From: Ligilactobacillus cholophilus
GTDB taxonomy: Bacteria > Bacillota > Bacilli > Lactobacillales > Lactobacillaceae
NCBI RefSeq assembly: GCF_030389495.1
Contig: NZ_CP127832.1
Location: 124,001-188,000, forward strand
Direction of reading: 5' to 3'
Length of the DNA stretch: 64,000 bases
Positions 1-11,568 of this stretch are shown here, piece after piece. The notes under the pieces were generated by a model. It was given only the letters and a program-made list of their open reading frames with translations, was not told the origin of the DNA and ran no database searches. The translations under genes were made by a program, and so were the position numbers. Each line of letters starts with the position of its first letter. Within the stretch, counting starts at the first letter, position 1.

Positions 1-963
1 GCCACAGATGATGGAATACAAAAAGTTGCAAGAGATCATTCATACAGTCCAATTTTGGATTATATGAATGAGGCATATAAAGAATGGGACAAGAAATCAA
101 GATTACAACATGTATTTCATGATTTTTTAGGAGTTGAAGAAAATGAAGTAACAGATTTAATAACAAGATTATTTTTTGTTGGTGGAGTGGCAAAAGCATA
201 TGATCCGAAAACTAAATTTGATTTTGTTTTAGATTTGGTAGGTAGTCAAGGAACAGGAAAAACTGAATTTTTAAAAAGATTAACGCCTTTAGAATATTAT
301 ACAGATCAATTTACAAGTTTTAGTGATAAAGATGATATTGCCACAATGGCAAGAAATTTTATTGTGAATGATGATGAAATGGTTGCTACAAATAAGTGTA
401 GTTTTGATGAATTAAAGAAATTTGTTTCATCAACTGAACTTAGTTTTAGACCACCTTATGGACATAGTAACGTTTATAGAAGTAAAGGTTTTATTATGGC
501 ACGTACAACCAATAATCTTTATTATTTAAAAGATAAAACAGGAGATCGTAGATTTTTACCAGTTCGTTGCCATCACAACCATAAAAATATATTTACTGAA
601 TTTACTGACGAATATGTTAAACAGCTTTGGGGCGAAGCCGTTAATTTATATAAATCTAAGACGGTTGATATATCAGCACATAGTAAAGAAGAAAATGAGT
701 TACTTAATAAACAAAGGAGACAGTTTAAGTATACTGATTTTTTTGATGACGCAGTATCTGATGTTGTTGAAAATTATTTAGCAGATAAAAATTTTATTTC
801 GAATGAAGAGCTATATAAGAAGACAACAGGAAAAGCTTTTTATGATTCTAGAGATAAAAAAGTAACTAATAAAATTAGTGATGTTATGGTAAATGTTTAT
901 GATTGGAGAAAATCAAGAAAAACTATAAATGGTAAACAAGTTCGTGGATTTACTAGACAGTAA
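1..963 (+). CDS. VapE-like phage/satellite primase-helicase, C-terminal part (5' end outside window)
   Basis: The reading frame is open from base 1, so the gene begins upstream of the window. The visible part is the superfamily 3 helicase-like domain of the virulence-associated E (VapE) family, which replicates phages and satellite islands. A KFDFVLDLVGSQGTGKTEF segment carries the P-loop (about 241-264), followed by an acidic NDDEM Walker B region and a TTNN...DRRFLPV sensor/arginine-finger stretch. These features are seen directly; the replication role comes from the family. The repeat-rich putative origin begins at its stop codon, as in SaPI-type islands where the origin follows the replication gene. 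The upstream part may hold a primase domain, which cannot be seen here. Confidence 0.85.
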   Translation, partial: ATDDGIQKVARDHSYSPILDYMNEAYKEWDKKSRLQHVFHDFLGVEENEVTDLITRLFFVGGVAKAYDPKTKFDFVLDLVGSQGTGKTEFLKRLTPLEYYTDQFTSFSDKDDIATMARNFIVNDDEMVATNKCSFDELKKFVSSTELSFRPPYGHSNVYRSKGFIMARTTNNLYYLKDKTGDRRFLPVRCHHNHKNIFTEFTDEYVKQLWGEAVNLYKSKTVDISAHSKEENELLNKQRRQFKYTDFFDDAVSDVVENYLADKNFISNEELYKKTTGKAFYDSRDKKVTNKISDVMVNVYDWRKSRKTINGKQVRGFTRQ

Positions 964-1229
964 AGACAGTATAAGACAATAAAATTTTGCTTATTGTCTA
1001 GTGGATAATCGTTGTCATATCAATACTTTATAACGATTATTAGACAGTAAGACAGTATATTCAATATAAAAAGTATAAATAATACTATTAACGTATAAAT
1101 GCGTTATTTGTATATATTACAGAAAAATTACTGTCTACTGTCTAGAAAAGTGTTGAAAGTGTTGTTAAATCAACGATAAACGACTAGACAAAGAAATGTT
1201 TTAAGTGTCTATGTATCAGTTCACTGTCT
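955..1229. repeat. Iteron-like array flanking an AT-rich block: candidate replication origin of the element
   Basis: The 7-mer AGACAGT occurs in direct orientation at 955-961, 964-970, 1042-1048 and 1050-1056. It occurs inverted (ACTGTCT) at 1130-1136, 1137-1143 and 1223-1229. Degenerate copies lie at 974-980, 993-999 and 1204-1210. Forward copies lie left and inverted copies right of a nearly pure A/T stretch (1057-1129). Two further inverted repeats lie inside: AGACAATAA (974-982) with TTATTGTCT (991-999), and ATAATCGTT (1005-1013) with AACGATTAT (1032-1040). Iterons on both sides of a melting region just after the replication gene is the known layout of SaPI origins; function here is inferred. 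This 290-bp gap contains no gene. Confidence 0.6.
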
Positions 1230-1252
1230 AATTACAGAAAGGAAAGATAAAA

Positions 1253-1441
1253 ATGATACAAGTAAAAGAATTTAGGGGTAGAGATTTAGTAGAAAATATT
1301 AATTTGTTTTTAAGTGCTAATCCACGTTATAAATTGATTGATATTAAATATAATCAAGGATTTTATGGAACGTTAGAAGATATTAGTTCATCATCTCAAG
1401 CATTGGTTATTTATGAGGTAAGCGGCAATGAAAGTAATTAG
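1253..1441 (+). CDS. Small Cse60-like protein (62 aa)
   Basis: A short acidic protein beginning MIQVKEF and containing a DLVENINLFL helix, an LIDIKYN strand and a C-terminal ALVIYE strand. This pattern resembles the Cse60 family, small proteins named after a Bacillus sporulation gene but common in phages and islands; their biochemical role is not known to me. The start is an ATG with a good AGAAAGGAAAG ribosome binding site. It is the first gene after the putative origin and overlaps the next gene by 14 bases, so the two are probably cotranslated. The family assignment is from pattern memory and moderately sure; coding status is likely from the ribosome binding site and the overlap. Confidence 0.6.
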   Translation: MIQVKEFRGRDLVENINLFLSANPRYKLIDIKYNQGFYGTLEDISSSSQALVIYEVSGNESN

Positions 1442-1673
1442 ATACGTAGATAAAAACATAATAGAAAACATTAAGAAGAATATTAAGGATAAAGAAGAAC
1501 AGATCAGTATATTAATAAAATTACTTGAATGGTATAATCATGAACATTCAATAATTTTCAATAAGAAACACAAAACACGCAAAGAATTAAATCGCCTTAA
1601 AGTTTTGGAAGAACGACAAAAAGTATTAGCTGATATGGCTATGGAATTAACTAATGAGCTGAAGGAGATGTAA
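1428..1673 (+). CDS. Hypothetical coiled-coil protein of the mobile element (81 aa)
   Basis: I do not recognise this gene. The protein is highly charged, rich in Lys and Glu, and should be almost entirely helical with heptad-like spacing from about residue 10 to the end, suggesting a coiled coil. It has no signal peptide and no membrane segment. The ATG overlaps the upstream Cse60-like gene by 14 bases, and a GAAGGAG at its own 3' end serves as ribosome binding site for the next small gene, so it sits in a tightly packed operon. Small helical proteins at this place in Lactobacillus prophages and satellites are common and mostly uncharacterised. Confidence 0.6.
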   Translation: MKVIRYVDKNIIENIKKNIKDKEEQISILIKLLEWYNHEHSIIFNKKHKTRKELNRLKVLEERQKVLADMAMELTNELKEM

Positions 1674-1677
1674 AGAT

Positions 1678-1845
1678 GTGGTTGTTTTAATTATTATTTT
1701 TATGATAGTAAATTCTTTTATAATGAATTATTTCTTTGACAAAAAACAAAGAAATAATATTAAACAATGTTTAAAATGGACAGTAATTGATTCTGTGTTA
1801 TCGATTATAGTAATGCTTGCGTTGTATTATGGGGTGATTAAATGA
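1678..1845 (+). CDS. Small two-helix membrane protein with GTG start (55 aa)
   Basis: A GTG-initiated frame of 56 codons fills the gap between its neighbours. It has a ribosome binding site GAAGGAG a suitable distance upstream, and its TGA overlaps the next ATG (ATGA, 1842-1845). The protein starts with a hydrophobic helix (about residues 2-20, rich in Ile, Val and Phe), then a short basic loop with DKKQRN, then a second hydrophobic helix (about residues 35-54). This predicts a hairpin in the membrane. No function is recognised; it is too short to be a typical holin and lacks the usual charged tail. The start/stop overlap on the 3' side argues that it is translated. Confidence 0.6.
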   Translation: MVVLIIIFMIVNSFIMNYFFDKKQRNNIKQCLKWTVIDSVLSIIVMLALYYGVIK

Positions 1846-2177
1846 AACAGTATCAACTATCAAGATTAAAGCATACAGCAGAATTTGGAATATATGACTA
1901 TCAAGAAGGAGCAAATGGTATAACAGTAGAAGTTTTTAAAACATTATTTACTAAGCGTTTTGGCTATGTAACTCAAAGTATTAATAGTCAATTATCAAAT
2001 ACAGGATTAAGTCAGACTTATCAAATTGCTATCTTTGTAAAGCATGATAAAAGATTGAAAGATACTTTAATAGTTAAGATTGATGAAGAAGAATATAAGA
2101 TTGCTACCTTGAACATTGATGATAGTTTGAATGGTTATGATACATTGACATTGAAAAAGAAAACAGGGATAGGATGA
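1842..2177 (+). CDS. Putative head-closure / head-tail adaptor protein (111 aa)
   Basis: The sequence is rich in beta strands and ends with the pattern DTLIVKIDEEEYKIATLNID...YDTLTLKKK, typical of small phage head-tail joining proteins related to SPP1 gp16 and HK97 gp7 (phage head-tail adaptor family). Such proteins close the portal after packaging and form the surface on which a tail docks. It overlaps the small membrane protein gene by 4 bases and the HNH gene by 4 bases (ATGA). A head-closure gene placed ahead of HNH and terminase, rather than after the capsid gene, is unusual for a complete siphophage but fits a compact capsid-forming satellite. The assignment rests on size, fold pattern and context. 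Confidence 0.6.
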   Translation: MKQYQLSRLKHTAEFGIYDYQEGANGITVEVFKTLFTKRFGYVTQSINSQLSNTGLSQTYQIAIFVKHDKRLKDTLIVKIDEEEYKIATLNIDDSLNGYDTLTLKKKTGIG

Positions 2178-2527
2178 AACCAGTTAAACAATGCGAACAT
2201 GCAGGTTGTACAGTATTAGTTCCTTATGATGTTAAGTATTGTGAAGCACATAAGAAACAAGCAGAGAAAGAACGATACAGTTATCGTATGAAGCGTGAAG
2301 GCAAATATCAACGTTTCTATAAAACAACAGCATGGAGAAAATTATCACACAGTTACATGATTGCTAATCCATTATGCGAATGGTGTTTGGAAGATGGTAT
2401 TATGCGAAAAGCTGACATTGTAGACCACATTGAACCAATCAGAGAAAATTGGAGCAAGCGATTAGACAGAAATAACTTACGAAGTCTTTGCAATTCTTGC
2501 CACTGGAAAAGACATCATAAAAAATAA
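2174..2527 (+). CDS. Phage HNH endonuclease (117 aa)
   Basis: The C-terminal half has the HNH signature: VDHIEPIRENW (residues about 80-90), the central NLRSLCNSCHWKRH, and paired cysteines CEWC and CNSC that bind a structural zinc. An N-terminal Cys/His pair (CEHAGC...YCEAHKK) adds a second zinc knuckle, as in many phage HNH proteins. HNH proteins next to terminase genes in cos-type phages with HK97-like heads work with the large terminase to cut cos DNA. The candidate cos site directly follows this gene. The start ATG overlaps the previous stop by 4 bases. The family is certain; the packaging role is inferred from position. Confidence 0.88.
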   Translation: MKPVKQCEHAGCTVLVPYDVKYCEAHKKQAEKERYSYRMKREGKYQRFYKTTAWRKLSHSYMIANPLCEWCLEDGIMRKADIVDHIEPIRENWSKRLDRNNLRSLCNSCHWKRHHKK

Positions 2528-2528
2528 A

Positions 2529-2580
2529 CAGGGGGCTATAAATTTTTTACGCAGGAGCGGACACGGACTTTTCTGTGAAT
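2529..2580. promoter_or_regulatory. Candidate cos (packaging) site between HNH and terS
   Basis: Immediately after the HNH stop, a G-run (GGGGG at 2531-2535) is followed by a TA-rich stretch. Next comes an atypically GC-rich block (GCAGGAGCGGACACGGAC, 2551-2568) with two GGAC repeats and then TTTTCTGTG. In cos-type phages of low-GC Gram-positive bacteria the cohesive-end site commonly lies exactly here, between the HNH gene and the small terminase gene, and is GC-rich. No gene occupies this interval. The cut positions cannot be read from one integrated copy. Confidence 0.45.
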
Positions 2581-2645
2581 AAAAATCCCTTTAAAATAAA
2601 AAATTTTTTATAATCCTAGATTAAAATAAGTATTTCTTATTTAAA

Positions 2646-2674
2646 TTGTACTTTTTATAAAAAAATGTTATAAT
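2646..2674 (+). promoter_or_regulatory. Promoter upstream of terS with extended -10
   Basis: A TTGTAC -35 box (2646-2651) and a perfect TATAAT -10 box (2669-2674) are separated by 17 bp, with a TG extension (TGTTATAAT). Transcription should start near 2681, where an ATG begins a 12-codon mini-ORF (2681-2719) that ends inside the following terminator hairpin. The promoter lies between the cos candidate and terS. Confidence 0.7.
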
Positions 2675-2699
2675 AATTATATGATAGAGAGAATGTGGG

Positions 2700-2731
2700 A
2701 AAACGTTGTTACATTGTAACAGCGTTTTTTT
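2700..2731 (+). terminator. Intrinsic terminator in the terS leader (possible attenuator)
   Basis: AAACGTTGTTAC (2701-2712) pairs with GTAACAGCGTTT (2716-2727) with one G-U pair and a 3-nt loop, followed by a T-run to 2731. It lies about 20 nt downstream of the predicted transcription start and just before the terS ribosome binding site, so a transcript from this promoter must read through it to express the packaging genes. Confidence 0.75.
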
Positions 2732-2752
2732 GTTAATAAGTGAGGTGAGAAG

Positions 2753-3205
2753 ATGAGTAGAAATGTAAAAGCATTAGGAGATATGACAAAACATTTAACC
2801 AATGAAGAAAAGGCGCAACGCAAAGAAATGGAAGAAACATTAAACCAATATTCTAAATTGGATATTATGCCACCTGATTGGTTAACTGATTATGCTCTTG
2901 AAGAATGGAATAGAGTAACACCAATTTTATTAAAAGAGACGCCTGTTAGTGAATTAGATAAAGGATTATTAGTTGCATATTGTGAAACATACTCTTTAAT
3001 TAAAACATGTACCTTAGCAATAAAAAAAGAGGGTACAGTGGTTGGTGGTAAGGAAAATAGAAATTTACGTTTACGAGAAAAAGCAGTTAAGGATTTAAGA
3101 TCTTTAAGTAATGATTTAGGATTGTCAATTTCATCAAGAGCAAAGTTAGCTTTAAATAAAGCACAGGAAATTGAAAAAGATGAGATTGGTGATTTACTTG
3201 AATAA
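2753..3205 (+). CDS. terS: Phage terminase small subunit, P27 family (150 aa)
   Basis: The protein matches the P27-type small terminase pattern: a charged N-terminus, then MPPDWLTDYALEEWNRVTPIL around residues 38-58. After this come a YCETYSLI helix, a glycine/asparagine loop (VVGGKENRN) and a C-terminal helix ending in the dimer-forming LSNDLGLSISSRAKLAL. Small terminases recognise the packaging site and load the large subunit. GAGGTGAGAAG precedes the ATG. The next gene probably starts at a TTG overlapping this stop. A separate terS specific to the element is what lets satellites package their own DNA. Length is normal for the family. Confidence 0.88.
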   Translation: MSRNVKALGDMTKHLTNEEKAQRKEMEETLNQYSKLDIMPPDWLTDYALEEWNRVTPILLKETPVSELDKGLLVAYCETYSLIKTCTLAIKKEGTVVGGKENRNLRLREKAVKDLRSLSNDLGLSISSRAKLALNKAQEIEKDEIGDLLE

Positions 3206-4901
3206 TCGTGTGCAAGAATATGCTGATAAAGTTTTAAATAATGAAATCATTACATGTACAAAAGTTAAACAAGCGTGTGATCGTTTTATTAAAGATTTAG
3301 CAAAACAACGGACAAAAGATTTTCCTTATTATTTTAATGAAGAGCTAGTAAATAAAATATTTCATTTTGTCGAGCTTTTACCAAGGACAGATGGTAAACC
3401 ATTAAAGCTTGAATTATTTCAATGTTTTATTCTAGGTAATTTGTATGGTTGGCGTTCTGTAAAAGATGACTCACGTCGATTTAATCGTTGCTTATTATCT
3501 TTTGCCCGTAAGAATGGTAAAACGTTCTTAATCGCAATTATGGGCATAATTGAACTATTGCTTGAAAAAGACCCACCTAGAGGTAGACAAGTATTATTTA
3601 CTGCTAACAGTAGTAAACAAGCACATTTAGCATTTGATATGATGGCAGACCAATTACATTTGCTTAGTGGGCAATCAAAAATTGTAAGACAAAGAGTAAA
3701 GATTAATAAACAAATAATTGAAGATCGTAAAACAAATTCATTTGCTGTTCCGCTTGCAACTGATAAAAGTTCACTAGATGGTTATAATCCCACTCTAGGC
3801 GTTGTTGACGAATTTCACTCAAGTAAAAACCGTGATATTATAAACGTTTTAAAATCTGGTATGGTTCAGCAGCCTAATAGTTTATTAGCAATTATTTCAA
3901 CAGCTGGATTTAATACCAATTCGCCTTTTAAAGAAGAATGCGATTATGTTTCTGATATATTATCAGGTGAAGAACAATCAGACCGTTATTTTGGTGTTAT
4001 TTATACTCTAGATGATAAAGAAGAGGTTAATAATCCTGATTGTTGGATTAAAGCTAATCCTTTGTTATCAAATAATAAAGTACGTGATACTATGTTTGAA
4101 CAAATTAAATCAGATGTTGAAGTTGAGATGAAACAAGAGAACATGGTAAACGTAATGGTTAAAAATATGAATGTGTTTATGCAAGCTCAAGAAGATAGTT
4201 TTATTAGTGCTTCTGATTGGGAAAAGGGCAAAACAAAGAGACCTAATATAAAAGGCAAAGATATTTATATTGGAATTGATTTATCTAAAAGTAATGATTT
4301 GACCGCTGTAAGTTGGATTATTCCAATAAATGGGAAGTTCTATTGTGATTCTCATTCATGGGTTGGTACTCATTATGGTCTTGAAAGTAAAATAAAGCGT
4401 GATGGAATTGATTATATTTCATTAGAACACAAGGGTGAATGTACAATTACAAAACTGGATAGTGGAGTAATTGATTATGATGATGTGTTTAGTTATGTTC
4501 AACGTTTAATTTTAGAAAATGAATTAAATGTTAAATATATTTGCTATGATCCATGGAATTTTGCACCATTACTTACTAAATTTGAAAAAGAGGGTTACCC
4601 TTTATTTGAAGTTCGACAAGGTACAAAAACAATGAATATACCAACACGAGACTTTAGAGAAAAATTATATAATGGAAAAATTAAACATTATAATAATAAA
4701 ATTCTATCTTATTCAATAAGTAATGCAATTTTAAAAGTTGATAATAACGGTGTGATTATTGATAAGGCTAGGAATAGCAATCGAATTGACCCAGTTGACG
4801 CATTATTAAATGCTTATGTGGCATGTATGAATTATTTTGATAATGAGGAGGCGAATAAGCAACGTGAAGAAATTATTAATCAAGGTGCTTTCATTTTTTA
4901 A
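3198..4901 (+). CDS. terL: Phage terminase large subunit (HK97/YmfN-type)
   Basis: This is the packaging ATPase and nuclease. The ATPase domain has a Walker A variant ARKNGKTF (about 3505-3528) and a Walker B LGVVDEFHSS (about 3797-3826). The RNase H-like nuclease domain begins with YIGIDLSKSNDLT (about 4267-4305), and a late DPVDALLNAY supplies a further acidic residue. The frame is open to a TTG at 3171, but TTG 3198 is preferred: it has GGTGAT at 3188-3193 and its codons overlap the terS TAA. This gives 567 aa, normal for the family. No frameshift or missing motif is visible, so the motor looks functional. Confidence 0.92.
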   Translation: MNNRVQEYADKVLNNEIITCTKVKQACDRFIKDLAKQRTKDFPYYFNEELVNKIFHFVELLPRTDGKPLKLELFQCFILGNLYGWRSVKDDSRRFNRCLLSFARKNGKTFLIAIMGIIELLLEKDPPRGRQVLFTANSSKQAHLAFDMMADQLHLLSGQSKIVRQRVKINKQIIEDRKTNSFAVPLATDKSSLDGYNPTLGVVDEFHSSKNRDIINVLKSGMVQQPNSLLAIISTAGFNTNSPFKEECDYVSDILSGEEQSDRYFGVIYTLDDKEEVNNPDCWIKANPLLSNNKVRDTMFEQIKSDVEVEMKQENMVNVMVKNMNVFMQAQEDSFISASDWEKGKTKRPNIKGKDIYIGIDLSKSNDLTAVSWIIPINGKFYCDSHSWVGTHYGLESKIKRDGIDYISLEHKGECTITKLDSGVIDYDDVFSYVQRLILENELNVKYICYDPWNFAPLLTKFEKEGYPLFEVRQGTKTMNIPTRDFREKLYNGKIKHYNNKILSYSISNAILKVDNNGVIIDKARNSNRIDPVDALLNAYVACMNYFDNEEANKQREEIINQGAFIF

Positions 4902-5058
4902 GAATTATATTCAAACCATTCTCTTAATTTTGGGAATGGTTTTTGTTATGTTTGGATGTTTTATTAATTTTGGTGTGGGTACGGGAATGATAGTTACAGG
5001 CACATTAATAATTATGCTTGCTTTCATTATCAATTACAACATGAAAGGAGGCGAATAA
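4864..5058 (+). CDS. DUF1056-like small membrane protein between terL and portal
   Basis: A short basic N-terminus (MKKLLIKVLSFFKNY) is followed by two strongly hydrophobic segments, TILLILGMVFVMFGCFINFG and MIVTGTLIIMLAFIINY, forming a membrane hairpin. A protein of this shape (DUF1056) is found between large terminase and portal genes in many Lactobacillus and Lactococcus phages; its role is unknown. The coding frame is open from 4837. I prefer GTG 4864, downstream of GAGGAGG at 4845-4851, although the 12-nt spacing is long; this gives 64 aa. The gene overlaps the end of terL by 38 bases and its own 3' end carries the AAAGGAGG used by the portal gene. Confidence 0.65.
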   Translation: MKKLLIKVLSFFKNYIQTILLILGMVFVMFGCFINFGVGTGMIVTGTLIIMLAFIINYNMKGGE

Positions 5059-5059
5059 G

Positions 5060-6187
5060 GTGGCTTTTTTTAAATCTAATACAAAACAAACTACATTAAC
5101 AGATGATCCTGTTTTTAATGCTTTAATTTCATATACAGATACAGGAGGCGAGTACGTTTCTCCTGTTGTATTAAAAAATAGTGATATTTTTAGTGCAATA
5201 AATATTATTGCTTCTGATGTTGCCAGTAATGAAGTGTATTGTGATACTGAGATATTAACAAAAATGGTTAATTTTAAACCATGTAGTTATATGGACGGTT
5301 GGCATTTCAAGTATGCGTTGTGTGCGAATATGCTTTTAAATGGAAATGCTTTTGCATTGATTGAGAATAACCATAATTTACGTTTTGTTCCTAATTCTCA
5401 AATGGCAGTATTACAAGATGACGTAACTAATGAAATTTCATATCAGTATACTCCAGAGAATGGCAGGAAAAGAGAATTAAAAGCTAAAGATGTTTTACAT
5501 TTTAAATATTCAACTATCAACGGAGTAACCGGAATTAGTCCATTATATTCATTAGCAAATGAAAGAGAAATTCAAGGCTTAGCTAATAAGTTACTTATTG
5601 GATTTTTTAATAATGGTGTGATTGGTGCAAAAGTATTAAAAGTAAAAAATACTGATTTAAATCAAGAAGCTTTAGATAATATAGCTGAAAGATTTCAAAA
5701 TTTAAAATCAGGAAAAGCAGGGATTGTTGCTCTTGATGACAATATGGATTTACAAAATCTAGAAATCAATTCAGATATTTTAAAATTAGTAAATTCAAAC
5801 GATTGGACAACAAAGCAGATTGCAAAAGCTTTTGGGTTACCACCTGAAAAATTAGGTGTTGAAAATGAACATAGCAACCAACAAATGAGTAACTTGCAAT
5901 ATTTACAAGGATCATTACAAAAGTATTTTGATTGTTTTACATCAGAATTAACTTTCAAACTTGGTAGTAATTGGAAATTTGATACTAGCAAGTTATTATC
6001 CTTAGATCCTACAACACAGCAAAATAATGCGATTGAGGGATATACAAATGGTGTACTTACATTGAATGAAGCACGCGCAAAAATTGGAATGCCAGAAGTT
6101 GATAATGGAGATAGTTTTATAGAAAGGAATGATATAAATGAAACAAGATCGCAGATTGACACAACAAGCACAAATGAAAGCGAATGA
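5060..6187 (+). CDS. Phage portal protein, HK97 gp3 family (375 aa)
   Basis: The portal ring forms the DNA entry vertex and the tail attachment site. Diagnostic stretches are the N-terminal VVLKNSDIFSAINIIASDVAS, a LLNGNAFALIE strand, KDVLHFKYSTINGVTGISPL, and the C-terminal half with TTKQIAKAFGLPPEKLGV followed by QQMSNLQYLQGSLQKYFDCF. It starts with GTG 5060 after AAAGGAGGCG. It is slightly short for the family but has all typical blocks. The next gene starts 50 bases before this stop, indicating tight translational coupling between portal and protease-capsid. A long frame on the opposite strand (5695-6195) is only a shadow of this gene. Confidence 0.92.
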   Translation: MAFFKSNTKQTTLTDDPVFNALISYTDTGGEYVSPVVLKNSDIFSAINIIASDVASNEVYCDTEILTKMVNFKPCSYMDGWHFKYALCANMLLNGNAFALIENNHNLRFVPNSQMAVLQDDVTNEISYQYTPENGRKRELKAKDVLHFKYSTINGVTGISPLYSLANEREIQGLANKLLIGFFNNGVIGAKVLKVKNTDLNQEALDNIAERFQNLKSGKAGIVALDDNMDLQNLEINSDILKLVNSNDWTTKQIAKAFGLPPEKLGVENEHSNQQMSNLQYLQGSLQKYFDCFTSELTFKLGSNWKFDTSKLLSLDPTTQQNNAIEGYTNGVLTLNEARAKIGMPEVDNGDSFIERNDINETRSQIDTTSTNESE

Positions 6188-7646
6188 TGTTCCAACAGAT
6201 AGCTCTAATGATGAAAAAGAAGAGCAAGACGAAAATAAAGAAACATCAAAAGTATTATCTGGTTATGCTATTATTTGGAATACACCAAGCAAAGATTTAG
6301 GCGGATTTAAAGAAGTCGTAGCACCTAATGCTTTAGATGATGTAGATTTATCTGATGTTTTAATGTTGAACAATCATGATTTTACACAGGTTTTAGCAAG
6401 TGTAAAAGCTGGAACATTAGAATTAGAACCAGATGATAAAGGATTACATTTTAAAGCTACTTTGCCAAATACATCATTTGCTAATGATGTTTATGAAGAA
6501 GTTAAAAGTGGTAATGTTGATGCTTGTTCATTTGGTTTTGAAGTAAATGATGGTGGCGATACATGGACTAAAGATGATGAAGGCAATATTACACGGACAA
6601 TTAATCAAGTAAAGAATTTATTTGATGTGTCTGTGGTTGCTATACCATCTTATGATGATACAAATGTCCAAGTTGACACACGTAGTTATGAAAAATTTAT
6701 AAATCAAGGAAAAGAGGAAAATAATATGAAAAAGAAAATCTTAGATAATGAAGAAAAAACAGAAACACGCTCATTTGAAGAATATATTCGTAGTCGCGGT
6801 GAATTTCGTGATGGTGTTACAACGCAAGGTGCAAGTGCAGTTATTCCTGATGAAATTATTACACCAGTTTTTGAATTAAAGAATTCAACATATGATTTAG
6901 CAAAAATTTGTACAGTAAAACAAGTTTCAAACGGTCAAGGACATTATCCAATTGCAACTAATCCTCAAAGTGCAATTCTAGCCACTAAAGAAGAATTAGC
7001 AGAAATTGGTGATGTTAATGCTAACATGTTCCAAGATGTGAAATTTGATGTAAAAACACGAGCTGGTAAGATTGCTCTATCAAATGAAGTTATTGAAGAT
7101 AGTGCAGTTGATATTGTTTCAGAAGTGAAAAATCAATTACAAAAATTAGTTCAAAATACTAATAATAAAAATATCATTGATTTATTAACTGGTTCATCAA
7201 GTCAATTTGCTAAAACAACAGCTAAAAACATTGATGATTTAAAGAAAGTATTTAATGTTACTCTTGATCCTGCTTTGAGTAAAACATGGGTAGTAAATCA
7301 AAACGGATTTAATTTCCTAGATACATTAAAAGATAATGAAGGACGTTACTTATTACAACCTGATGTAACAGCACCAAGTGGTTTTAGTTTATTAGGTGCG
7401 CCAGTGATGGTAATTTCAAATACAATTTTATCTGATAATTCAGATGGTACATCACCTGTTTTAGTTGGTGATTTTGCTCAAGCTTTAGTTGTATTTGAAA
7501 GAAATCAAGTTACAGCCCAATGGGATAAATTTGATAGCTTTAGTGAAGGGTTATCAGTTATCTTACGTTCAGATTATGAAGTTATTGATAAAAGCGCAGT
7601 TGTAAATATTGCATTAACAACAACCACTGCTGAAACTGCAAAATAA
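6138..7646 (+). CDS. Fused prohead protease and major capsid protein (502 aa) with internal in-frame start
   Basis: Residues about 40-185 form an HK97-family prohead protease: SGYAIIWN opening strand, a LMLNNHD segment with the catalytic histidine, and VDACSFGFE with the catalytic serine. From about residue 197 the chain continues without a stop into an HK97-fold major capsid protein: a charged delta-like region (KKILDNEEKTETRSFEEYIRS), then TTQGASAVIPDEI and typical shell-domain strands to the C-terminus. An ATG at 6726 is in frame and preceded by AGAGGAAA (6713-6720, 5-nt spacing), so free capsid protein of 306 aa could also be made from the same gene. This economical design suits a small satellite genome. 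Both domains look complete. Confidence 0.9.
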   Translation: MKQDRRLTQQAQMKANDVPTDSSNDEKEEQDENKETSKVLSGYAIIWNTPSKDLGGFKEVVAPNALDDVDLSDVLMLNNHDFTQVLASVKAGTLELEPDDKGLHFKATLPNTSFANDVYEEVKSGNVDACSFGFEVNDGGDTWTKDDEGNITRTINQVKNLFDVSVVAIPSYDDTNVQVDTRSYEKFINQGKEENNMKKKILDNEEKTETRSFEEYIRSRGEFRDGVTTQGASAVIPDEIITPVFELKNSTYDLAKICTVKQVSNGQGHYPIATNPQSAILATKEELAEIGDVNANMFQDVKFDVKTRAGKIALSNEVIEDSAVDIVSEVKNQLQKLVQNTNNKNIIDLLTGSSSQFAKTTAKNIDDLKKVFNVTLDPALSKTWVVNQNGFNFLDTLKDNEGRYLLQPDVTAPSGFSLLGAPVMVISNTILSDNSDGTSPVLVGDFAQALVVFERNQVTAQWDKFDSFSEGLSVILRSDYEVIDKSAVVNIALTTTTAETAK

Positions 7647-7655
7647 TTAAAAAGT

Positions 7656-7687
7656 AGGGCTTAGGTTTTACCTAAGCTCTTTTTTTA
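7656..7687 (+). terminator. Intrinsic terminator between capsid and connector genes
   Basis: GGGCTTAGGT (7658-7667) pairs with ACCTAAGCTC (7670-7679) with one G-U pair, followed by a run of T to about 7686. The ribosome binding site GGAGGTGAAG of the connector gene follows directly, so some read-through must occur; it probably sets a lower dose of the connector than of the capsid protein. Confidence 0.75.
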
Positions 7688-7701
7688 TAGGAGGTGAAGA
7701 T

Positions 7702-7977
7702 ATGACTGTACAAGTAAGTGATGTGAAAAAAGCATTATGTATTGATATAGATGATGATGACGAAATTATTCAAACGTACATTGATAATGCTACTGAATAT
7801 ATAAAAACAGCGGTATCAGAAACAGCAGATTTAACCAAGTATAAACAATTTGATTATGCTGTTACTTTATTAACCCAATTCTGGTACTTAAATCGTGATA
7901 TAGATATGAAAAAGCAACCGTTTCAAGTTGTATCATTAATTCAACAATTAAAATCTAAAGTAATATCTATAAATTAA
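7702..7977 (+). CDS. Head-tail connector protein, gp6-like (91 aa)
   Basis: The protein has the all-helical pattern of the Phage_connect_1 / HK97 gp6 family: VSDVKKALCIDIDDDDEIIQTYIDNATEYIKTAV, then a YKQFDYAVTLLTQFWYLNRD helix. Gp6-type proteins form the ring below the portal and create the docking site for the neck or tail. ATG 7702 follows an excellent GGAGGTGAAG site. It is the last structural gene in the element: no head-closure, tail terminator, tail tube, tape measure, baseplate, holin or lysin gene follows, although the related head-closure gene is present upstream. That gap is the main reason for calling the element a satellite that needs tails from a helper. Confidence 0.82.
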   Translation: MTVQVSDVKKALCIDIDDDDEIIQTYIDNATEYIKTAVSETADLTKYKQFDYAVTLLTQFWYLNRDIDMKKQPFQVVSLIQQLKSKVISIN

Positions 7978-7988
7978 ATTTATTTCTA

Positions 7989-8017
7989 TTTACTTATTGA
8001 TAAATATTTGTTATAAT
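7989..8017 (+). promoter_or_regulatory. Promoter ahead of the ArpU-like gene pair, extended -10
   Basis: A TTTACT -35-like hexamer (7989-7994) lies 17 bp from a perfect TATAAT (8012-8017) with the TG extension (TGTTATAAT). The ten bases of the -10 region resemble the promoter at 2646-2674. A start codon again lies 7 nt after the -10 box (ATG 8024), opening a 10-codon mini-ORF (8024-8056). Confidence 0.6.
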
Positions 8018-8078
8018 GTATTTATGGTTAGATATTATAAGTTTGTTGCATTTTAAATAGTACCATTATAACTCTTCG

Positions 8079-8109
8079 AAAGCTCTATCATTTTGATAGA
8101 GCTTTTTTT
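8079..8109 (+). terminator. Intrinsic terminator between the late promoter and the first ArpU-like gene
   Basis: AGCTCTATCA (8081-8090) and TGATAGAGCT (8094-8103) form a perfect 10-bp stem with a TTT loop, followed by seven T. It can end transcripts of the capsid operon and also any RNA started at the promoter at 8012, giving a short RNA of about 85 nt, unless read-through occurs into the regulator genes. Confidence 0.8.
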
Positions 8110-8132
8110 ATTTTATAAAGAAGGTGGTTAAT

Positions 8133-8495
8133 TTGAGAAGTGATGTAAAAATGATTAAATCAATTCTAAATAAGTACATAAAATTAAAAAAAGATTTGCA
8201 AGAATTCACAGTATTATCAAGCCCACTAATTGGTTCAATGGGTAGCAAAAGTAAAAAGAATAATGTTGAGAGTAAAATTTTACAACATGCAGATTATGAA
8301 TTAACCATCTCAAAAATTGAAAAGGCGATACAAAGCGTCTCTGATGATCGTTTAAAATTCATTTTGAATAACTACATAATTAATAAACAGTACAGTGTTT
8401 CAGAGATGTGTGAAAAATTATCAACATCAAAAAGTAATTTCAATTATTTAAAGAATAAAGCATTAAAAGAGTTTTATACATTATACGCTGGGTGA
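8133..8495 (+). CDS. ArpU/RinA-like late transcription regulator, first of two (120 aa)
   Basis: The C-terminal half resembles a sigma-70 region 4-like helix-turn-helix found in ArpU, RinA and LtrC-type phage regulators: DDRLKFILNNYIINKQYSVSEMCEKLSTSKSNFNYLKNKALKEF. These proteins activate late packaging and structural genes. The start is best placed at TTG 8133, because AAGGTGG (8121-8127) is correctly spaced for it, whereas it overlaps the upstream GTG 8124. The following gene is clearly similar in the same C-terminal region, so the pair looks like a tandem duplication. Being downstream of its own terminator-guarded promoter suggests feedback on late expression; this is inference. Confidence 0.65.
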   Translation: MRSDVKMIKSILNKYIKLKKDLQEFTVLSSPLIGSMGSKSKKNNVESKILQHADYELTISKIEKAIQSVSDDRLKFILNNYIINKQYSVSEMCEKLSTSKSNFNYLKNKALKEFYTLYAG

Positions 8496-8500
8496 TTTCC

Positions 8501-8890
8501 ATGAATGACAAAGAAAAAGAAATAATAAAACAGGTAAAACGATTTTTTTATAAGGATTATCCTAAATATAAACAGTTATCAGTTTTTGCGGATTTGAGTT
8601 CAGTAAATTTTGATGGTGTAAAAAGTTCTAGTAATATTAATCACCAAGAGCAAAGAATGGTAAAGGCGATTGAGGCTAAAAACATTGTAGAAATGGTTAA
8701 TACAATTATTGATAATATTTGTGATAGTCGGTATAAAACGATTTTAAAGAAATGTTATTTACAGAATGTGCCTAAATGGCAAGTTGAAAATGAATTGATG
8801 TATAGTCATAGTACATTTTATAAATTACAAAATGAGGCACTTTTGCTGTTTGCAGAGTTGTTTAATAAAATTATTGAAGTAACCATATAA
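8501..8890 (+). CDS. ArpU/RinA-like late transcription regulator, second of two (129 aa)
   Basis: The pattern CDSRYKTILKKCYLQNVPKWQVENELMYSHSTFYKLQNEALLLF lines up with the C-terminal region of the preceding protein (shared D-R-K-IL, S-F-L-N-AL-F positions). It marks the same sigma4-like helix-turn-helix family. ATG 8501 is chosen because GGTGAT (8491-8496) is 4 nt upstream; a GTG at 8492 overlapping the previous TGA is less well supported. The two regulators may act as a heterodimer or serve different promoters; the sequence does not say. The last 18 bases including the stop are duplicated just downstream. Confidence 0.62.
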   Translation: MNDKEKEIIKQVKRFFYKDYPKYKQLSVFADLSSVNFDGVKSSSNINHQEQRMVKAIEAKNIVEMVNTIIDNICDSRYKTILKKCYLQNVPKWQVENELMYSHSTFYKLQNEALLLFAELFNKIIEVTI

Positions 8891-8909
8891 GATTGAAGTA
8901 ACCATATAA
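8873..8909. repeat. Tandem 18-bp duplication at the end of the second ArpU-like gene
   Basis: ATTGAAGTAACCATATAA occurs at 8873-8890, where it encodes the last codons and the stop, and again at 8892-8909 with one base between. This looks like a simple replication-slippage duplication; the second copy is non-coding. Confidence 0.9.
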
Positions 8910-8945
8910 AAATGATAAACTTCTTTATAAAGAAAGGTGATTACG

Positions 8946-9599
8946 ATGATTTATTCAAGTGAAAGGCAGTTAGCCATATCTGGTTGGCTTAAAGAAAATG
9001 ATCAGAGTAGTTTTAATATATCATTAAAATTGCAAAAGTTTTTATTTTTTTATGAAAGCATGTCAAAAGTTGATGGTGACGATTATGATTTCCGTAAATT
9101 GAGAGGTTATAAGAATGGTCCTGTATTTAGTAACGTATGGGGAGATTACACTAAAGAAAGACCAAGTTTCGATCAAAAGTGTGATGAAGTTTATACAAGT
9201 AAAAAAGATATAGTTTGCGTTAATAGGGCAAAAACTGTAGATTTTTTTATACAAACATGTACTGAACATGAGTTATCAGAAATTTCGCATACTATGAATA
9301 TTTGGAAAAATAAAAAAGAGCGCATTAATAGCAATGAATATCAAGTTGATTTAGATGAAAATGATTTTTCTTCTGAAGATACTATATTAATTAAAAACAT
9401 AGAACAATTATACCCGCCTGAAATGATAGATAAAAATAAAGTAATTAGATGTGGAGATAAAATATTTATTCTATCTAACGAAGATTATACTAAGATTAAT
9501 CCTGAACAAATGGATACTTTAATGGAGTTGTCTAATGATAGTACGTTAGAAAACCCTGTATATGTTGATATAGATGAAGGGGTTCTTTTAATTGATTAG
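8946..9599 (+). CDS. Panacea (DUF4065) domain antitoxin-like protein (217 aa)
   Basis: The N-terminal 120 residues carry the Panacea/SocA-like signature: LAISGWL, SLKLQKFLFFYESM, the KLRGYKNGPVFSNVWGDY block and a later LSEISHTMNIW helix. Panacea proteins are antitoxins able to neutralise many unrelated toxins and are common in prophages and islands. The C-terminal 90 residues are acidic and may hold the toxin-specific part. ATG 8946 follows AAAGGTGA (8933-8940) at good distance. The next gene starts within its last codons (8-base overlap), the classic arrangement of an antitoxin-toxin pair. Position at the element's right end, just before the attachment region, is typical for accessory cargo. 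Confidence 0.75.
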   Translation: MIYSSERQLAISGWLKENDQSSFNISLKLQKFLFFYESMSKVDGDDYDFRKLRGYKNGPVFSNVWGDYTKERPSFDQKCDEVYTSKKDIVCVNRAKTVDFFIQTCTEHELSEISHTMNIWKNKKERINSNEYQVDLDENDFSSEDTILIKNIEQLYPPEMIDKNKVIRCGDKIFILSNEDYTKINPEQMDTLMELSNDSTLENPVYVDIDEGVLLID

Positions 9600-9999
9600 A
9601 CAAAAAGATGTTATAACCATTCGGATGCCTTATCCAAATATACACAGCAGGTTAGCTAAAAAAGCTCATATGTACATATGTAAAAAACATGACATTGAGT
9701 CGGAGTACGAGTTAATAAAGTGTCAATCTTATAAAACTAAAGATTTGCCTTATTTAAATCACAGAATAATTGAAGATGCCGATATTAGAAGAAATCCATT
9801 TAATCATAGGTCATTGATAGATTGCGACAAGTTATTTTTATGTCAGAATATTAATATATCAGATGTTTTTTTAACTTCTAAAAGAAGAGATGTTTGCTCT
9901 GATTTATATGATGATATTATTAATGAGTTAAATGAAGATGGATTTGATACAATTTCATTACCGGCAGAAGACATGAAATGTATAAATGATGTATTGTAA
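9592..9999 (+). CDS. Putative toxin partner of the Panacea antitoxin (135 aa)
   Basis: The protein starts with DVITIRMPYPN, followed by KKAHMYICKKHD and a NPFNHRSLIDCDKLFLCQ segment. This order of strands resembles the SH3-like barrel of PemK/MazF-type toxins (entry strand with a proline, lysine-rich K-x-x-M/R turn, later hydrophobic strands), but similarity is weak and I make the call mainly from context. TTG 9592 with GAAGGGG upstream overlaps the antitoxin gene by 8 bases. It may act as a stability module or as a defence against other phages, both known for this class. A strong terminator follows. Confidence 0.55.
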   Translation: MIRQKDVITIRMPYPNIHSRLAKKAHMYICKKHDIESEYELIKCQSYKTKDLPYLNHRIIEDADIRRNPFNHRSLIDCDKLFLCQNINISDVFLTSKRRDVCSDLYDDIINELNEDGFDTISLPAEDMKCINDVL

Positions 10000-10018
10000 A
10001 ATAAAATTTCACATTTTT

Positions 10019-10051
10019 AAACTTTCTTTTACAAAAAAAGAAAGTTTTTTT
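10019..10051 (+). terminator. Intrinsic terminator after the toxin-antitoxin operon
   Basis: AAACTTTCTTTT (10019-10030) pairs perfectly with AAAAGAAAGTTT (10036-10047) around an ACAAA loop, followed by a T-run. It ends rightward transcription of the mobile element. Confidence 0.8.
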
Positions 10052-10055
10052 ATAC

Positions 10056-10086
10056 AAAAAAACTGCTAGCAATCAAGCTAACAGTT
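10056..10086 (-). terminator. Leftward intrinsic terminator, probably for the rpiA-pepC transcript
   Basis: AACTGCTAGC (10061-10070) and GCTAACAGTT (10077-10086) form a 10-bp stem with one mismatch. On the minus strand the hairpin is followed by seven T (A-run 10056-10062 on the plus strand). It faces transcription arriving from pepC. Confidence 0.6.
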
Positions 10087-10104
10087 ACGCCCTTGACCTA
10101 GATT

Positions 10105-10126
10105 TTTTGGCTAAGTTTTGGCTAGG
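10105..10126. repeat. Tandem 11-bp direct repeats near the right junction: candidate integrase arm sites
   Basis: TTTTGGCTAAG (10105-10115) is followed without gap by TTTTGGCTAGG (10116-10126). Head-to-tail copies spaced one DNA turn apart near an element end are typical of arm-type binding sites of tyrosine integrases. The region 9999-10234 holds no gene; it contains two terminators, these repeats and an inverted repeat. Confidence 0.45.
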
Positions 10127-10178
10127 TTTTATGTTAAATTTAATGAAATAGCATGAAACGTAATTAAAAACTAAATTC

Positions 10179-10210
10179 TTAATAAACGTTGATATTACGC
10201 GGTTTATTAA
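10179..10210. repeat. 9-bp inverted repeat near pepC: candidate attR core or pepC 3' hairpin
   Basis: TTAATAAAC (10179-10187) and GTTTATTAA (10202-10210) are perfect inverted repeats separated by 14 bp that include GATATTACGCG. They lie 24 bp beyond the pepC stop. They could be the integrase core site or a weak stem in the pepC 3' region. Without the left end of the element the core cannot be fixed. Confidence 0.3.
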
Positions 10211-10233
10211 ACAATATGAAAAGAAATAAAATG

Positions 10234-11568
10234 TTAAGCTAAGCTTCCCATGGGGTCCCAAGGCTTTAAAATTGTAGGTTTTTCATTTAAGATTTTTTGT
10301 AGTTCTTTTGGAAGGTACTTTTTGTTTACAACAATTTGATAACAAAATTCTTCCATCCAACTGTCACTCATTACGAAAAAGCCTTTTTCACCAACTTTTT
10401 CGCCCCAAGAATTTTCGACTTTCCATTTTGTAGGTTGGTCATTAACTAAATCTACACCAGTAAGAACCATTGCGTGTGTCATTAAACTTTCACAATAATC
10501 TAAACGTTCAGCTTTTGACATTGAAAAGTCAATATCAAAAAGTTCATCTTGATGGTACAATTCTGGATCCATAATACCTTCCTTGCGATCTGATTCTTGT
10601 CCAACATCTGATCCAAACCAGACACTTTGACCATTCTTTAATTGTTCGATTGCAACTTTTCGAAAAGTATTCATATCAACATTCAAATGTCTTACTTCTC
10701 GACCACCTAGAACGTTTCCAAGCATTTCAACGGTATACATGTGATTGAATGGCTTGTCTTTAGTAGGAGCGTTGATAATTGAAACATAATCATCTAAATT
10801 CCAACCAACATATTTGTTGAAAAATTCTTGTGGTGTAATATTTTGAATACTATGATATTGATTATCCTTATCATAGTATTCAAAATTAAATTCATTGACT
10901 GGTTCTCCAAATGAATATGCAAGCATACGATATACTTCTGTTAACATTTCTTGTTTGACTCTTCTAACTTCAGTCATATCAGTATTAGCATGAATTAACT
11001 CTCTAAGCTTAACTGCATCTTTACGTAACTTTAAATTTAATTGTTTATTTATCTCAGTTGAATTTGAAGAGTTAAATGTTTCTGGCATAACAGATTTAGG
11101 AACTACACCATATTTTTGGATTAGAGCAACGATCATATCCCATTGACCACCATCTTGTTGAGGGGTTTGCAATAACCAACTTACTTTACGATCAGATGTT
11201 TCTAAATCTGCAGTTGCAATGATATTTTCGTAAAAATAATTTGATTTTTCTAACTTATCCCAGAAAAATGTATAGTTTTGCGATAATTCAAAATCATCGC
11301 GCATATTTAATTTTTCACGCATAGAATGACGCATAGTATTTAAAGCGGCAAACATCCAGCAACGGCCAGATCTTTTTTGATCTGCTACTTTTCCAGTTTC
11401 TAAATTAATAGAAAAAACCGGATCCATATTAACTTCTGAACGATAATCTTTGCATACATTTAAAATACCATTTTTAGTTACGGCGCGTTCAGAAATTTCA
11501 TGTCCTTTAAGATCATCTAAGTTTGATTGAAAATTTTTTAATTGTTCTAAACTAATTTCCTTTTTCAT
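10234..11568 (-). CDS. pepC: Aminopeptidase C, bleomycin hydrolase family (444 aa)
   Basis: Cytosolic cysteine peptidase of lactic acid bacteria that removes N-terminal amino acids from peptides imported during growth on protein. The catalytic Cys70 sits in RSGRCWMFAALN, the His near residue 365 in THAMVLTGV, and the Asn near residue 386 in VENSWG. Length and the C-terminal tail, which reaches into the active site in this family, are normal. The start ATG follows AAGGTG on the minus strand. The gene lies 16 bp after rpiA on the same strand and probably forms an operon with it. Its 3' end is the chromosomal border of the mobile element; insertion has not damaged the coding region. Confidence 0.97.
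   Translation of the reverse strand: MKKEISLEQLKNFQSNLDDLKGHEISERAVTKNGILNVCKDYRSEVNMDPVFSINLETGKVADQKRSGRCWMFAALNTMRHSMREKLNMRDDFELSQNYTFFWDKLEKSNYFYENIIATADLETSDRKVSWLLQTPQQDGGQWDMIVALIQKYGVVPKSVMPETFNSSNSTEINKQLNLKLRKDAVKLRELIHANTDMTEVRRVKQEMLTEVYRMLAYSFGEPVNEFNFEYYDKDNQYHSIQNITPQEFFNKYVGWNLDDYVSIINAPTKDKPFNHMYTVEMLGNVLGGREVRHLNVDMNTFRKVAIEQLKNGQSVWFGSDVGQESDRKEGIMDPELYHQDELFDIDFSMSKAERLDYCESLMTHAMVLTGVDLVNDQPTKWKVENSWGEKVGEKGFFVMSDSWMEEFCYQIVVNKKYLPKELQKILNEKPTILKPWDPMGSLA

What the first reader, a model, noticed from the sequence alone, without database searches (positions are those of the whole stretch)
8946..9999. Panacea-type toxin-antitoxin cargo with a poorly characterised toxin at the element's end
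A DUF4065/Panacea protein overlaps by 8 bases a 135-aa partner that I can place only weakly as PemK/MazF-like. Panacea domains neutralise many unrelated toxins, so the partner may be a new toxin class. Its place beside the attachment region is the usual site of phage-defence or stability cargo.
Basis: partly seen in the sequence, partly recalled or inferred. Interest (0 to 1): 0.6.

Follow-up and report, generated by a model that had tools for sequence, protein, structure and literature searches.

The report
Panacea toxin-antitoxin pair on phage satellite
A small phage-satellite element in this bacterium probably carries a two-gene poison-and-antidote pair; such antidotes are already known, but this poison belongs to an uncharacterised family predicted to be shaped like the RNA-cutting MazF toxins while lacking their usual conserved active-site arginine.

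Summary
A 217-aa gene (8946-9599) overlaps a 135-aa gene (9592-9999) by 8 bases, as the last genes of a ~14.3-kb satellite with its own head genes, inserted at the 3' end of pepC. The first protein is a diverged Panacea/SocA antitoxin: Pfam misses it, but 5 of 12 aligned members hit PF13274 and profile comparison with ordinary Panacea proteins is clear. It has an extra ~85-residue C-terminal part. The second belongs to PHROG 29631 (function unknown). Its predicted fold is MazF/Kid-like (Z 11.4), but sequence profiles do not link it to PemK/MazF and MazF's Arg-Pro is not conserved. Both genes sit together in 20 of 20 viral contigs found with either protein. In 20 compared pairs the toxin always starts with TTG inside the antitoxin's end (8-base overlap in 17, 11 in 3). 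Best reading: a type II Panacea toxin-antitoxin module whose toxin probably blocks translation. Two other Panacea/MazF-like pairs are validated (PMC8832971), so the kind is known; the toxin family and its missing arginine are the new part. Toxicity and any role in defence are untested.

The parts
8946..9599 (+). Antitoxin candidate, 217 aa: Panacea/SocA-like domain (about residues 18-133) plus a family-specific C-terminal extension (about 134-217)
   Evidence: phrog_1281 E 1.6e-14; profile comparison with 8 Panacea proteins (7 distinct) score 63.2 against at most 22.1 in 100 column shuffles; 5 of 12 aligned members hit PF13274, best E 6.4e-5, the window protein not; AF2 pLDDT 95.8
9592..9999 (+). 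Toxin candidate, 135 aa, TTG start, predicted MazF/Kid fold, phrog_29631
   Evidence: phrog_29631 E 6.5e-27, 12 of 12 aligned members; AF2 pLDDT 81.2, pTM 0.78; Foldseek 1ne8 E 7.3e-4; VIA-align Z 11.4 to 7bxy, rmsd 2.6 over 103 residues
9592..9599 (+). 8-base overlap TTGATTAG: toxin TTG start over the antitoxin stop
   Evidence: TTG in 20 of 20 pairs; overlap 8 bases in 17, 11 in 3
9578..9582 (+). GG-rich (ribosome-binding-like) motif inside the antitoxin's last codons
   Evidence: A GG-rich tetramer within 20 bases upstream in 20 of 20 pairs by a loose definition; last Gly codons end in A/G 23 of 23 against 68 of 128 elsewhere, Fisher p 3e-6, related sequences
8873..8909 (+). Two perfect 18-base direct repeats 19 bases apart, just before the antitoxin; possible operator
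   Evidence: both copies exact; 1 of 100 shuffles of the window had 2 or more matches at up to 3 mismatches
10019..10052 (+). A+T-rich hairpin with T-run after the toxin; possible terminator
   Evidence: Read from the sequence; not reported by the terminator scan, so weak
10234..10263 (.). Right attachment repeat at the 3' end of pepC
   Evidence: 27 of 30 bases match the left end; the same-species G729 element has the two repeats identical over 30 bases
1..10263 (.). Right-hand part of the satellite: VapE, HNH, terminases, portal, protease-capsid, connector, two ArpU-like genes, toxin-antitoxin pair
   Evidence: integrase, repressor and primase lie left of the window

Best explanation
The pair is a type II toxin-antitoxin module carried as cargo by a capsid-encoding phage satellite. 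The Panacea antitoxin is translated first. The toxin is translated from a TTG start inside the antitoxin's stop region, so that its synthesis is coupled to, and probably lower than, that of the antitoxin. The antitoxin binds the MazF-fold toxin directly, probably through its family-specific C-terminal extension, with the Panacea domain as platform or sensor. When the antitoxin is lost or a trigger is sensed, the toxin stops growth, most likely by acting on RNA and blocking translation. Shown: the genes, overlap, start codon, conservation of the pair and the Panacea relationship. Predicted: the fold. Inferred: toxicity, binding, RNA target, coupling strength and trigger.
For: Antitoxin is Panacea by three lines. 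Toxin candidate has a predicted MazF/Kid fold. 20 of 20 viral contigs found with either protein carry both genes. TTG start and 8- or 11-base overlap in 20 of 20 pairs. Pairwise identities of the two proteins correlate, r 0.80 over 19 pairs, 0 of 5000 permutations. Antitoxin-first is the commoner order in Panacea pairs, 943 against 325 (PMC8832971, section 5 part 1). Two Panacea pairs with predicted MazF-like toxins were verified and specifically inhibit protein synthesis, and one of them (P. moraviensis) forms a stable complex. Extra segments of some Panacea antitoxins do the neutralising (PMC10440598, passages).
Against: No toxicity data. Sequence profiles do not connect the toxin to PemK/MazF. 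No arginine is conserved where MazF has catalytic R25 (R in 2 of 20 at column 24 and 2 of 20 at column 25). One genome (G425) has an intact toxin ORF with only a 35-aa antitoxin remnant. A Mycoplasma phage has a truncated Panacea with no toxin beside it. Correlated identities can come from joint inheritance alone. Fold search of the antitoxin gave no clear match. Eight predicted toxins in PMC8832971 were not toxic in E. coli.
Confidence: 0.65

Rival explanations
1. The toxin has the MazF/CcdB fold but is not a standard mRNA interferase: it poisons DNA gyrase (CcdB-like), or acts on RNA with a different active site built from residues such as H26, S/T46, K48, D77 and K/R80.
For: No conserved MazF arginine; H26, K48 and D77 invariant, S or T at 46 and K or R at 80 in 20 of 20 sequences. 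CcdB structures also match the model, best Z 9.0. No profile similarity to PemK/MazF.
Against: MazF structures match better (Z 11.4) and fill the top ranks. The two studied Panacea-linked MazF-like toxins inhibit protein synthesis.
Confidence: 0.25
2. Type VI-like: the Panacea protein is a SocA-like adaptor that hands the partner to ClpXP for degradation rather than blocking it by binding.
For: SocA of Caulobacter carries this domain and works so; NCBIfam's SocA model hits 4 of 12 members weakly, best E 0.0067.
Against: ClpXP and Lon were not needed for neutralisation by the Panacea antitoxins tested in PMC8832971, and five pairs form stable complexes.
Confidence: 0.1
3. Not a toxin-antitoxin pair: two co-expressed satellite/prophage proteins serving the element, for example in late-gene control or helper interference.
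For: In the window and in L002 the pair follows ArpU-like or similar small regulator genes; the orphan toxin ORF of G425 seems tolerated.
Against: The pair also occurs in other contexts: behind lysins, between tail genes, near HNH genes (by eye). It is absent from the same-species genome with an element at the same site (antitoxin search). Panacea plus MazF fold is a known toxin-antitoxin combination.
Confidence: 0.12

Closest known systems
PanAT pairs with predicted MazF-like RNase toxins (Bifidobacterium ruminantium, Pseudomonas moraviensis; PMC8832971)
   Same: Panacea antitoxin with a MazF/PemK-like toxin that Pfam/CDD-type searches do not name
MazF / PemK / Kid toxins (PF02452)
   Same: Predicted fold
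   Different: No PF02452 match (12 members; own-genome scan finds only the chromosomal gene); no profile similarity; no conserved Arg-Pro; partner is not a MazE type
SocA/SocB (type VI toxin-antitoxin)
   Same: Antitoxin domain family (weak)
   Different: Partner not compared with SocB; adaptor mechanism untested
Streptococcus satellite phages Javan216 and Javan89
   Same: Same antitoxin family, 36% identity, near one end of the element; Javan216 has the toxin too, 28.5%, with the same overlap
   Different: Javan216 does not annotate the toxin; the Javan89 record stops at the antitoxin's end; no capsid gene is annotated in either record
Lacticaseibacillus phages R23.1 and JB1P3 (14.1-14.5-kb records)
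   Same: Closest capsid proteins, 57-58% identity
   Different: Neither record matched this toxin or antitoxin

Membership tests
Panacea/SocA antitoxin (PF13274) | Sequence similarity to the Panacea domain | tested here: met
   Not by Pfam on the window protein, but 5 of 12 aligned members, profile comparison 63.2 against at most 22.1 in 100 shuffles, and genome hits to ordinary Panacea proteins
Panacea/SocA antitoxin (PF13274) | Compact helical Panacea fold with two strands | tested here: inconclusive
   AF2 model has helices plus a strand pair at 52-61, but no solved Panacea was identified; best named Panacea match in the viral library is rank 21, E 2.2, prob 0.30
Panacea/SocA antitoxin (PF13274) | Two-gene operon with a toxin, conserved across species | tested here: met
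   20 of 20 viral contigs and 20 non-identical pairs
Panacea/SocA antitoxin (PF13274) | Neutralises the partner | not testable with these tools
   Needs expression assays
MazF/PemK toxin (PF02452) | MazF/Kid beta-barrel fold | tested here: met
   Predicted model only: Foldseek E 7.3e-4, Z 11.4
MazF/PemK toxin (PF02452) | Sequence or profile similarity | tested here: not met
   No Pfam match at E 0.1 in 12 members; hhalign 11.4 against a shuffle maximum of 17.6, and 14.3 with a more diverse set of 24. Therefore called MazF-folded, not filed as a member
MazF/PemK toxin (PF02452) | Catalytic Arg25 (with Pro26) and Thr48 | tested here: inconclusive
   No conserved Arg at columns 23-26; S or T conserved at 46. 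The residue register is not secure because the profile alignment is not significant; importance of R25/P26/T48 from passages of PMC8634880
MazF/PemK toxin (PF02452) | Endoribonuclease activity | not testable with these tools
   Needs biochemistry
Type VI SocAB system | ClpXP-dependent degradation of the toxin | not testable with these tools
   Needs clpX deletion assays
Capsid-encoding phage satellite (cf-PICI-like) | Integrase, repressor, primase/VapE, own terminase and head genes, about 14 kb, specific insertion site | tested here: met
   No tail or lysis gene among the ORFs scanned, but not all small ORFs were scanned
Capsid-encoding phage satellite (cf-PICI-like) | Dependence on a helper phage for tails and mobilisation | not testable with these tools
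   Needs induction experiments

The most novel reading that the evidence does not exclude
A MazF-fold toxin family of satellites and prophages has lost the canonical MazF arginine and works by another active site (invariant H26, K48, D77, with S/T46 and K/R80) or on another target. It is held by a Panacea protein whose own C-terminal part neutralises while the Panacea domain senses a helper or rival phage, letting a satellite police the phages it depends on.
Probability: 0.2. Interest if true: 0.65.

Novelty: new variant of a known kind. Interest (0 to 1): 0.42.

Why it matters
Panacea is known to guard many toxins; what it senses is an open question. A pair below the reach of the Pfam model, with a toxin lacking the usual MazF arginine, gives a compact test of whether the MazF fold can be toxic with another active site, and of which part of the antitoxin neutralises. 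Its home on a satellite that encodes its own heads makes a phage-linked trigger directly testable. The always-TTG, overlapping toxin start may explain why such toxins go unannotated, as in the Javan216 record.

Tried and rejected
Direct look-ups of the window pair gave little. Pfam: no Panacea or PemK hit at E 1. NCBIfam: for the antitoxin only an implausible ATP-grasp hit (E 0.0083, bits far below its cut-off), for the toxin none. PADLOC: none. A single-sequence viral scan with the toxin found nothing; alignment-based scans did. PDB sequence searches with toxin, antitoxin and Panacea profiles gave no hit below E 0.25.

The toxin-to-MazF link by profile failed with a narrow set (28 sequences) and a more diverse one (24 sequences; 2 of the 20 extra regions gave no usable sequence and were dropped). 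The antitoxin fold gave one isolated PDB match, chain B of the DarTG complex 7yk3 (Z 7.5, rmsd 5.0, 132 residues), under the level the tool calls telling for helical proteins; a lead only. The C-terminal extension alone and the complex could not be modelled (both prediction jobs used).

Promoters: 13 promoter-like sites against 16.7 expected, no claim. Rfam: none at gathering threshold in 8000-10400. No tRNA. A first att search found only a 13-mer inside another gene, and a second, stopping at 10240, only A+T-rich matches; extending to 10320 found the repeat. dN/dS with YN00 failed for most pairs and was redone with a hand-written Nei-Gojobori: one of five pairs is saturated for both genes, and L004/L009 has few changes, with a toxin ratio of 0.55. 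In one search I first read the L016/L018/L021 toxins from ACG; one search moved the start to the TTG three bases upstream.

Rows left out of the 20-pair set: L015, L019, L020, L022, L042 (same proteins as listed ones), L006 (record ends at the antitoxin stop), L008 (degenerate), L003 (weak; not confirmed by tblastn), L099/L122 (orphan toxin), L005 (truncated antitoxin). Hit H5 (second Mycoplasma phage) was not opened. L009 was also left out of the Mantel test.

Literature: whether this cluster is in the supplementary tables of PMC8832971 could not be checked. Seven searches showed no listing whose title or abstract start describes this pair; that covers only the open-licence library and listed rows. 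Of PMC8832971 I saw abstract, outline, part 1 of section 5, sections 6, 7 and 8, and passages; of PMC10440598 and PMC8634880 passages only; other papers as search listings.

Full report
OBSERVATION. The second starts with TTG. No tRNA was found in the window.

SETTING. The pair ends a ~14.3-kb element (own-genome positions 119916 to about 134263). Left of the window are an integrase, a repressor-like regulator and a primase-type gene. In the window follow VapE and HNH genes, small and large terminase, portal, a protease-capsid fusion and a head-tail connector, and two ArpU-like genes, only the second over NCBIfam's cut-off. Among the ORFs scanned I saw no tail or lysis gene; not every small ORF was scanned. 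This is the make-up of a satellite that builds its own heads (the name cf-PICI is recalled; it also appears as a term count). Its closest capsid relatives are in 14.1-14.5-kb Lacticaseibacillus records. It is inserted at the 3' end of pepC: a repeat at 10234-10263 matches the left end at 27 of 30 bases (local alignment score 51 against a maximum of 27 in 300 shuffles). In a genome of the same species (G729) a nearly identical integrase sits at the same site, the two repeats are identical over 30 bases, and the repressor differs in its N-terminal part. This antitoxin was not found there, and the best terminase match is 30% identical, on another contig. So the pair looks like variable cargo. Only about 2 kb of that second element were seen.

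THE ANTITOXIN. Pfam does not reach the window protein. Yet phrog_1281 matches over residues 3-180, 5 of 12 aligned members hit PF13274 SocA_Panacea (best 6.4e-5) and 4 of 12 hit NCBIfam's SocA model weakly (best 0.0067). The family profile compared with eight Panacea proteins (seven distinct) from related genomes scores 63.2 (probability 96); 100 column shuffles reach at most 22.1. The same profile, run over genomes, finds ordinary Panacea proteins, including the own genome's second one, over about residues 18-140. Residues beyond are a family-specific extension with a conserved end. The AF2 model is confident (pLDDT 95.8), but fold search was not decisive: no clear PDB match; in the viral library the two best rows are unnamed (prob 1.00, E 0.023 and 0.034) and the first named Panacea protein is rank 21, E 2.2.

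THE TOXIN CANDIDATE. All 12 aligned members match phrog_29631, function unknown; none has a meaningful Pfam match (three single-member hits at E 0.06-0.1). The AF2 model (pLDDT 81.2, pTM 0.78; two of the five models much lower) is MazF-like: Foldseek's best hit is B. subtilis YdcE (E 7.3e-4, the only one under 0.001), and the second aligner gives Z 11.4 to a B. cereus interferase over 103 residues, with MazF and Kid entries filling the top and CcdB at 9.0. Sequence does not support the same claim: profile comparison with MazF/PemK is no better than shuffled columns. In 20 sequences the invariant residues are M1, V7, P15, H26, Y28, K48, P69, F70, D77 and F82; position 46 is S or T and position 80 K or R in all. 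Arginine stands in 2 of 20 at column 24 and 2 of 20 at column 25, about where MazF has R25-P26, which matter for RNase activity (PMC8634880, passages). The register is uncertain. I therefore call it MazF-folded, not a MazF.

CONSERVATION OF THE PAIR. Scans of viral contigs with the antitoxin alignment found 19 loci and with the toxin alignment 16, from 20 contigs in all; each of the 20 carries both genes side by side. Removing identical copies leaves 16; adding the window, a genome of the window's family (G248, L002), Javan216 (L004) and a Lachnospiraceae MAG (L007) gives 20 pairs. In all 20 the toxin start is TTG; the overlap is 8 bases in 17 and 11 in 3; a GG-rich motif, loosely defined, lies within 20 bases upstream, inside antitoxin codons. 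Gly codons among the last ten antitoxin codons end in A or G in 23 of 23 cases, against 68 of 128 elsewhere in the same genes (Fisher p 3e-6), though the sequences are related. The natural reading is translational coupling with a weak start. Pairwise identities of the two proteins correlate (r 0.80 over 19 pairs, 0 of 5000 permutations), as expected of genes that travel together. Nei-Gojobori dN/dS is 0.14-0.31 for the antitoxin and 0.14-0.55 for the toxin in four unsaturated pairs of five.

RARITY. With the window toxin: 3 of 301 family genomes, one a weak match with stops that tblastn with 20 family toxins did not confirm; 1 of 50,697 phage records; none of 72,556 plasmids. With the toxin alignment: 2 of 398 phylum genomes.

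AGAINST. Genome G425 has an intact toxin ORF with only a 35-aa piece of the antitoxin's C-terminus in front, in a region that looks conjugation-like by eye. Either the toxin is weak, silent or inactive there, or the C-terminal piece is enough to neutralise; the second is a guess. L008 holds broken remains of both genes. A Mycoplasma phage has an 89-aa Panacea fragment and no toxin next to it.

MECHANISM. Panacea antitoxins tested in PMC8832971 did not need ClpXP or Lon, and five pairs form stable complexes, among them the P. moraviensis pair with a predicted MazF-like toxin. That toxin and the B. ruminantium one specifically inhibit protein synthesis. In some Panacea antitoxins with extra segments the extra segment neutralises, and Panacea is proposed as a sensor (PMC10440598, passages). 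By analogy the C-terminal extension is the likely neutraliser here. Toxicity, target and trigger remain untested. On a satellite, stability and anti-phage roles are both plausible and not separable from sequence.

VERDICT. A real, conserved and probably functional Panacea toxin-antitoxin pair: a known kind, with an uncharacterised toxin family predicted to keep the MazF fold but not its usual arginine.

Noticed in passing
G000:C1:859413-859742 (L023, L097): The own genome has a second, ordinary Panacea gene (over the PF13274 cut-off) followed by a gene whose protein looks membrane-bound by eye.
   Followed up: partly
L099 1401-1926 / L122 5533-6058 (G425): Intact toxin ORF behind only the last 35 residues of the antitoxin, with the TTG overlap kept: a natural case for testing whether the C-terminus alone neutralises.
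   Followed up: partly
L005 3986-4255 (MW358880, Mycoplasma phage): An 89-aa ORF with the N-terminal Panacea part only, no toxin beside it even under code 4: remnant or possible decoy.
   Followed up: partly
L004 8668-9096 (MK448366, Javan216): The toxin reading frame is not annotated in the record, perhaps because of its overlapping TTG start.
   Followed up: yes
L131 and L132 (G729 contigs C20 and C23): A same-species genome has an element with a nearly identical integrase and 30-base attachment repeats at the same pepC site but another repressor N-terminus, and no hit to this antitoxin.
   Followed up: partly
window 8873-8909: Two perfect 18-base direct repeats between the second ArpU-like gene and the antitoxin; possible operator.
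   Followed up: partly
window 8124-8890: Two adjacent ArpU-like genes of different sequence; only the second passes NCBIfam's cut-off.
   Followed up: no
window 8946-9599 (model m67427170e455): The only PDB match above Z 5 listed for the Panacea model is chain B of the DarTG complex 7yk3 (Z 7.5, 132 residues); a possible distant fold link, below the safe level.
   Followed up: no
L029 1411-2188 (G321): A 124-aa Panacea protein followed by an 85-aa ORF that by eye resembles a short PemK/MazF-like protein.
   Followed up: no
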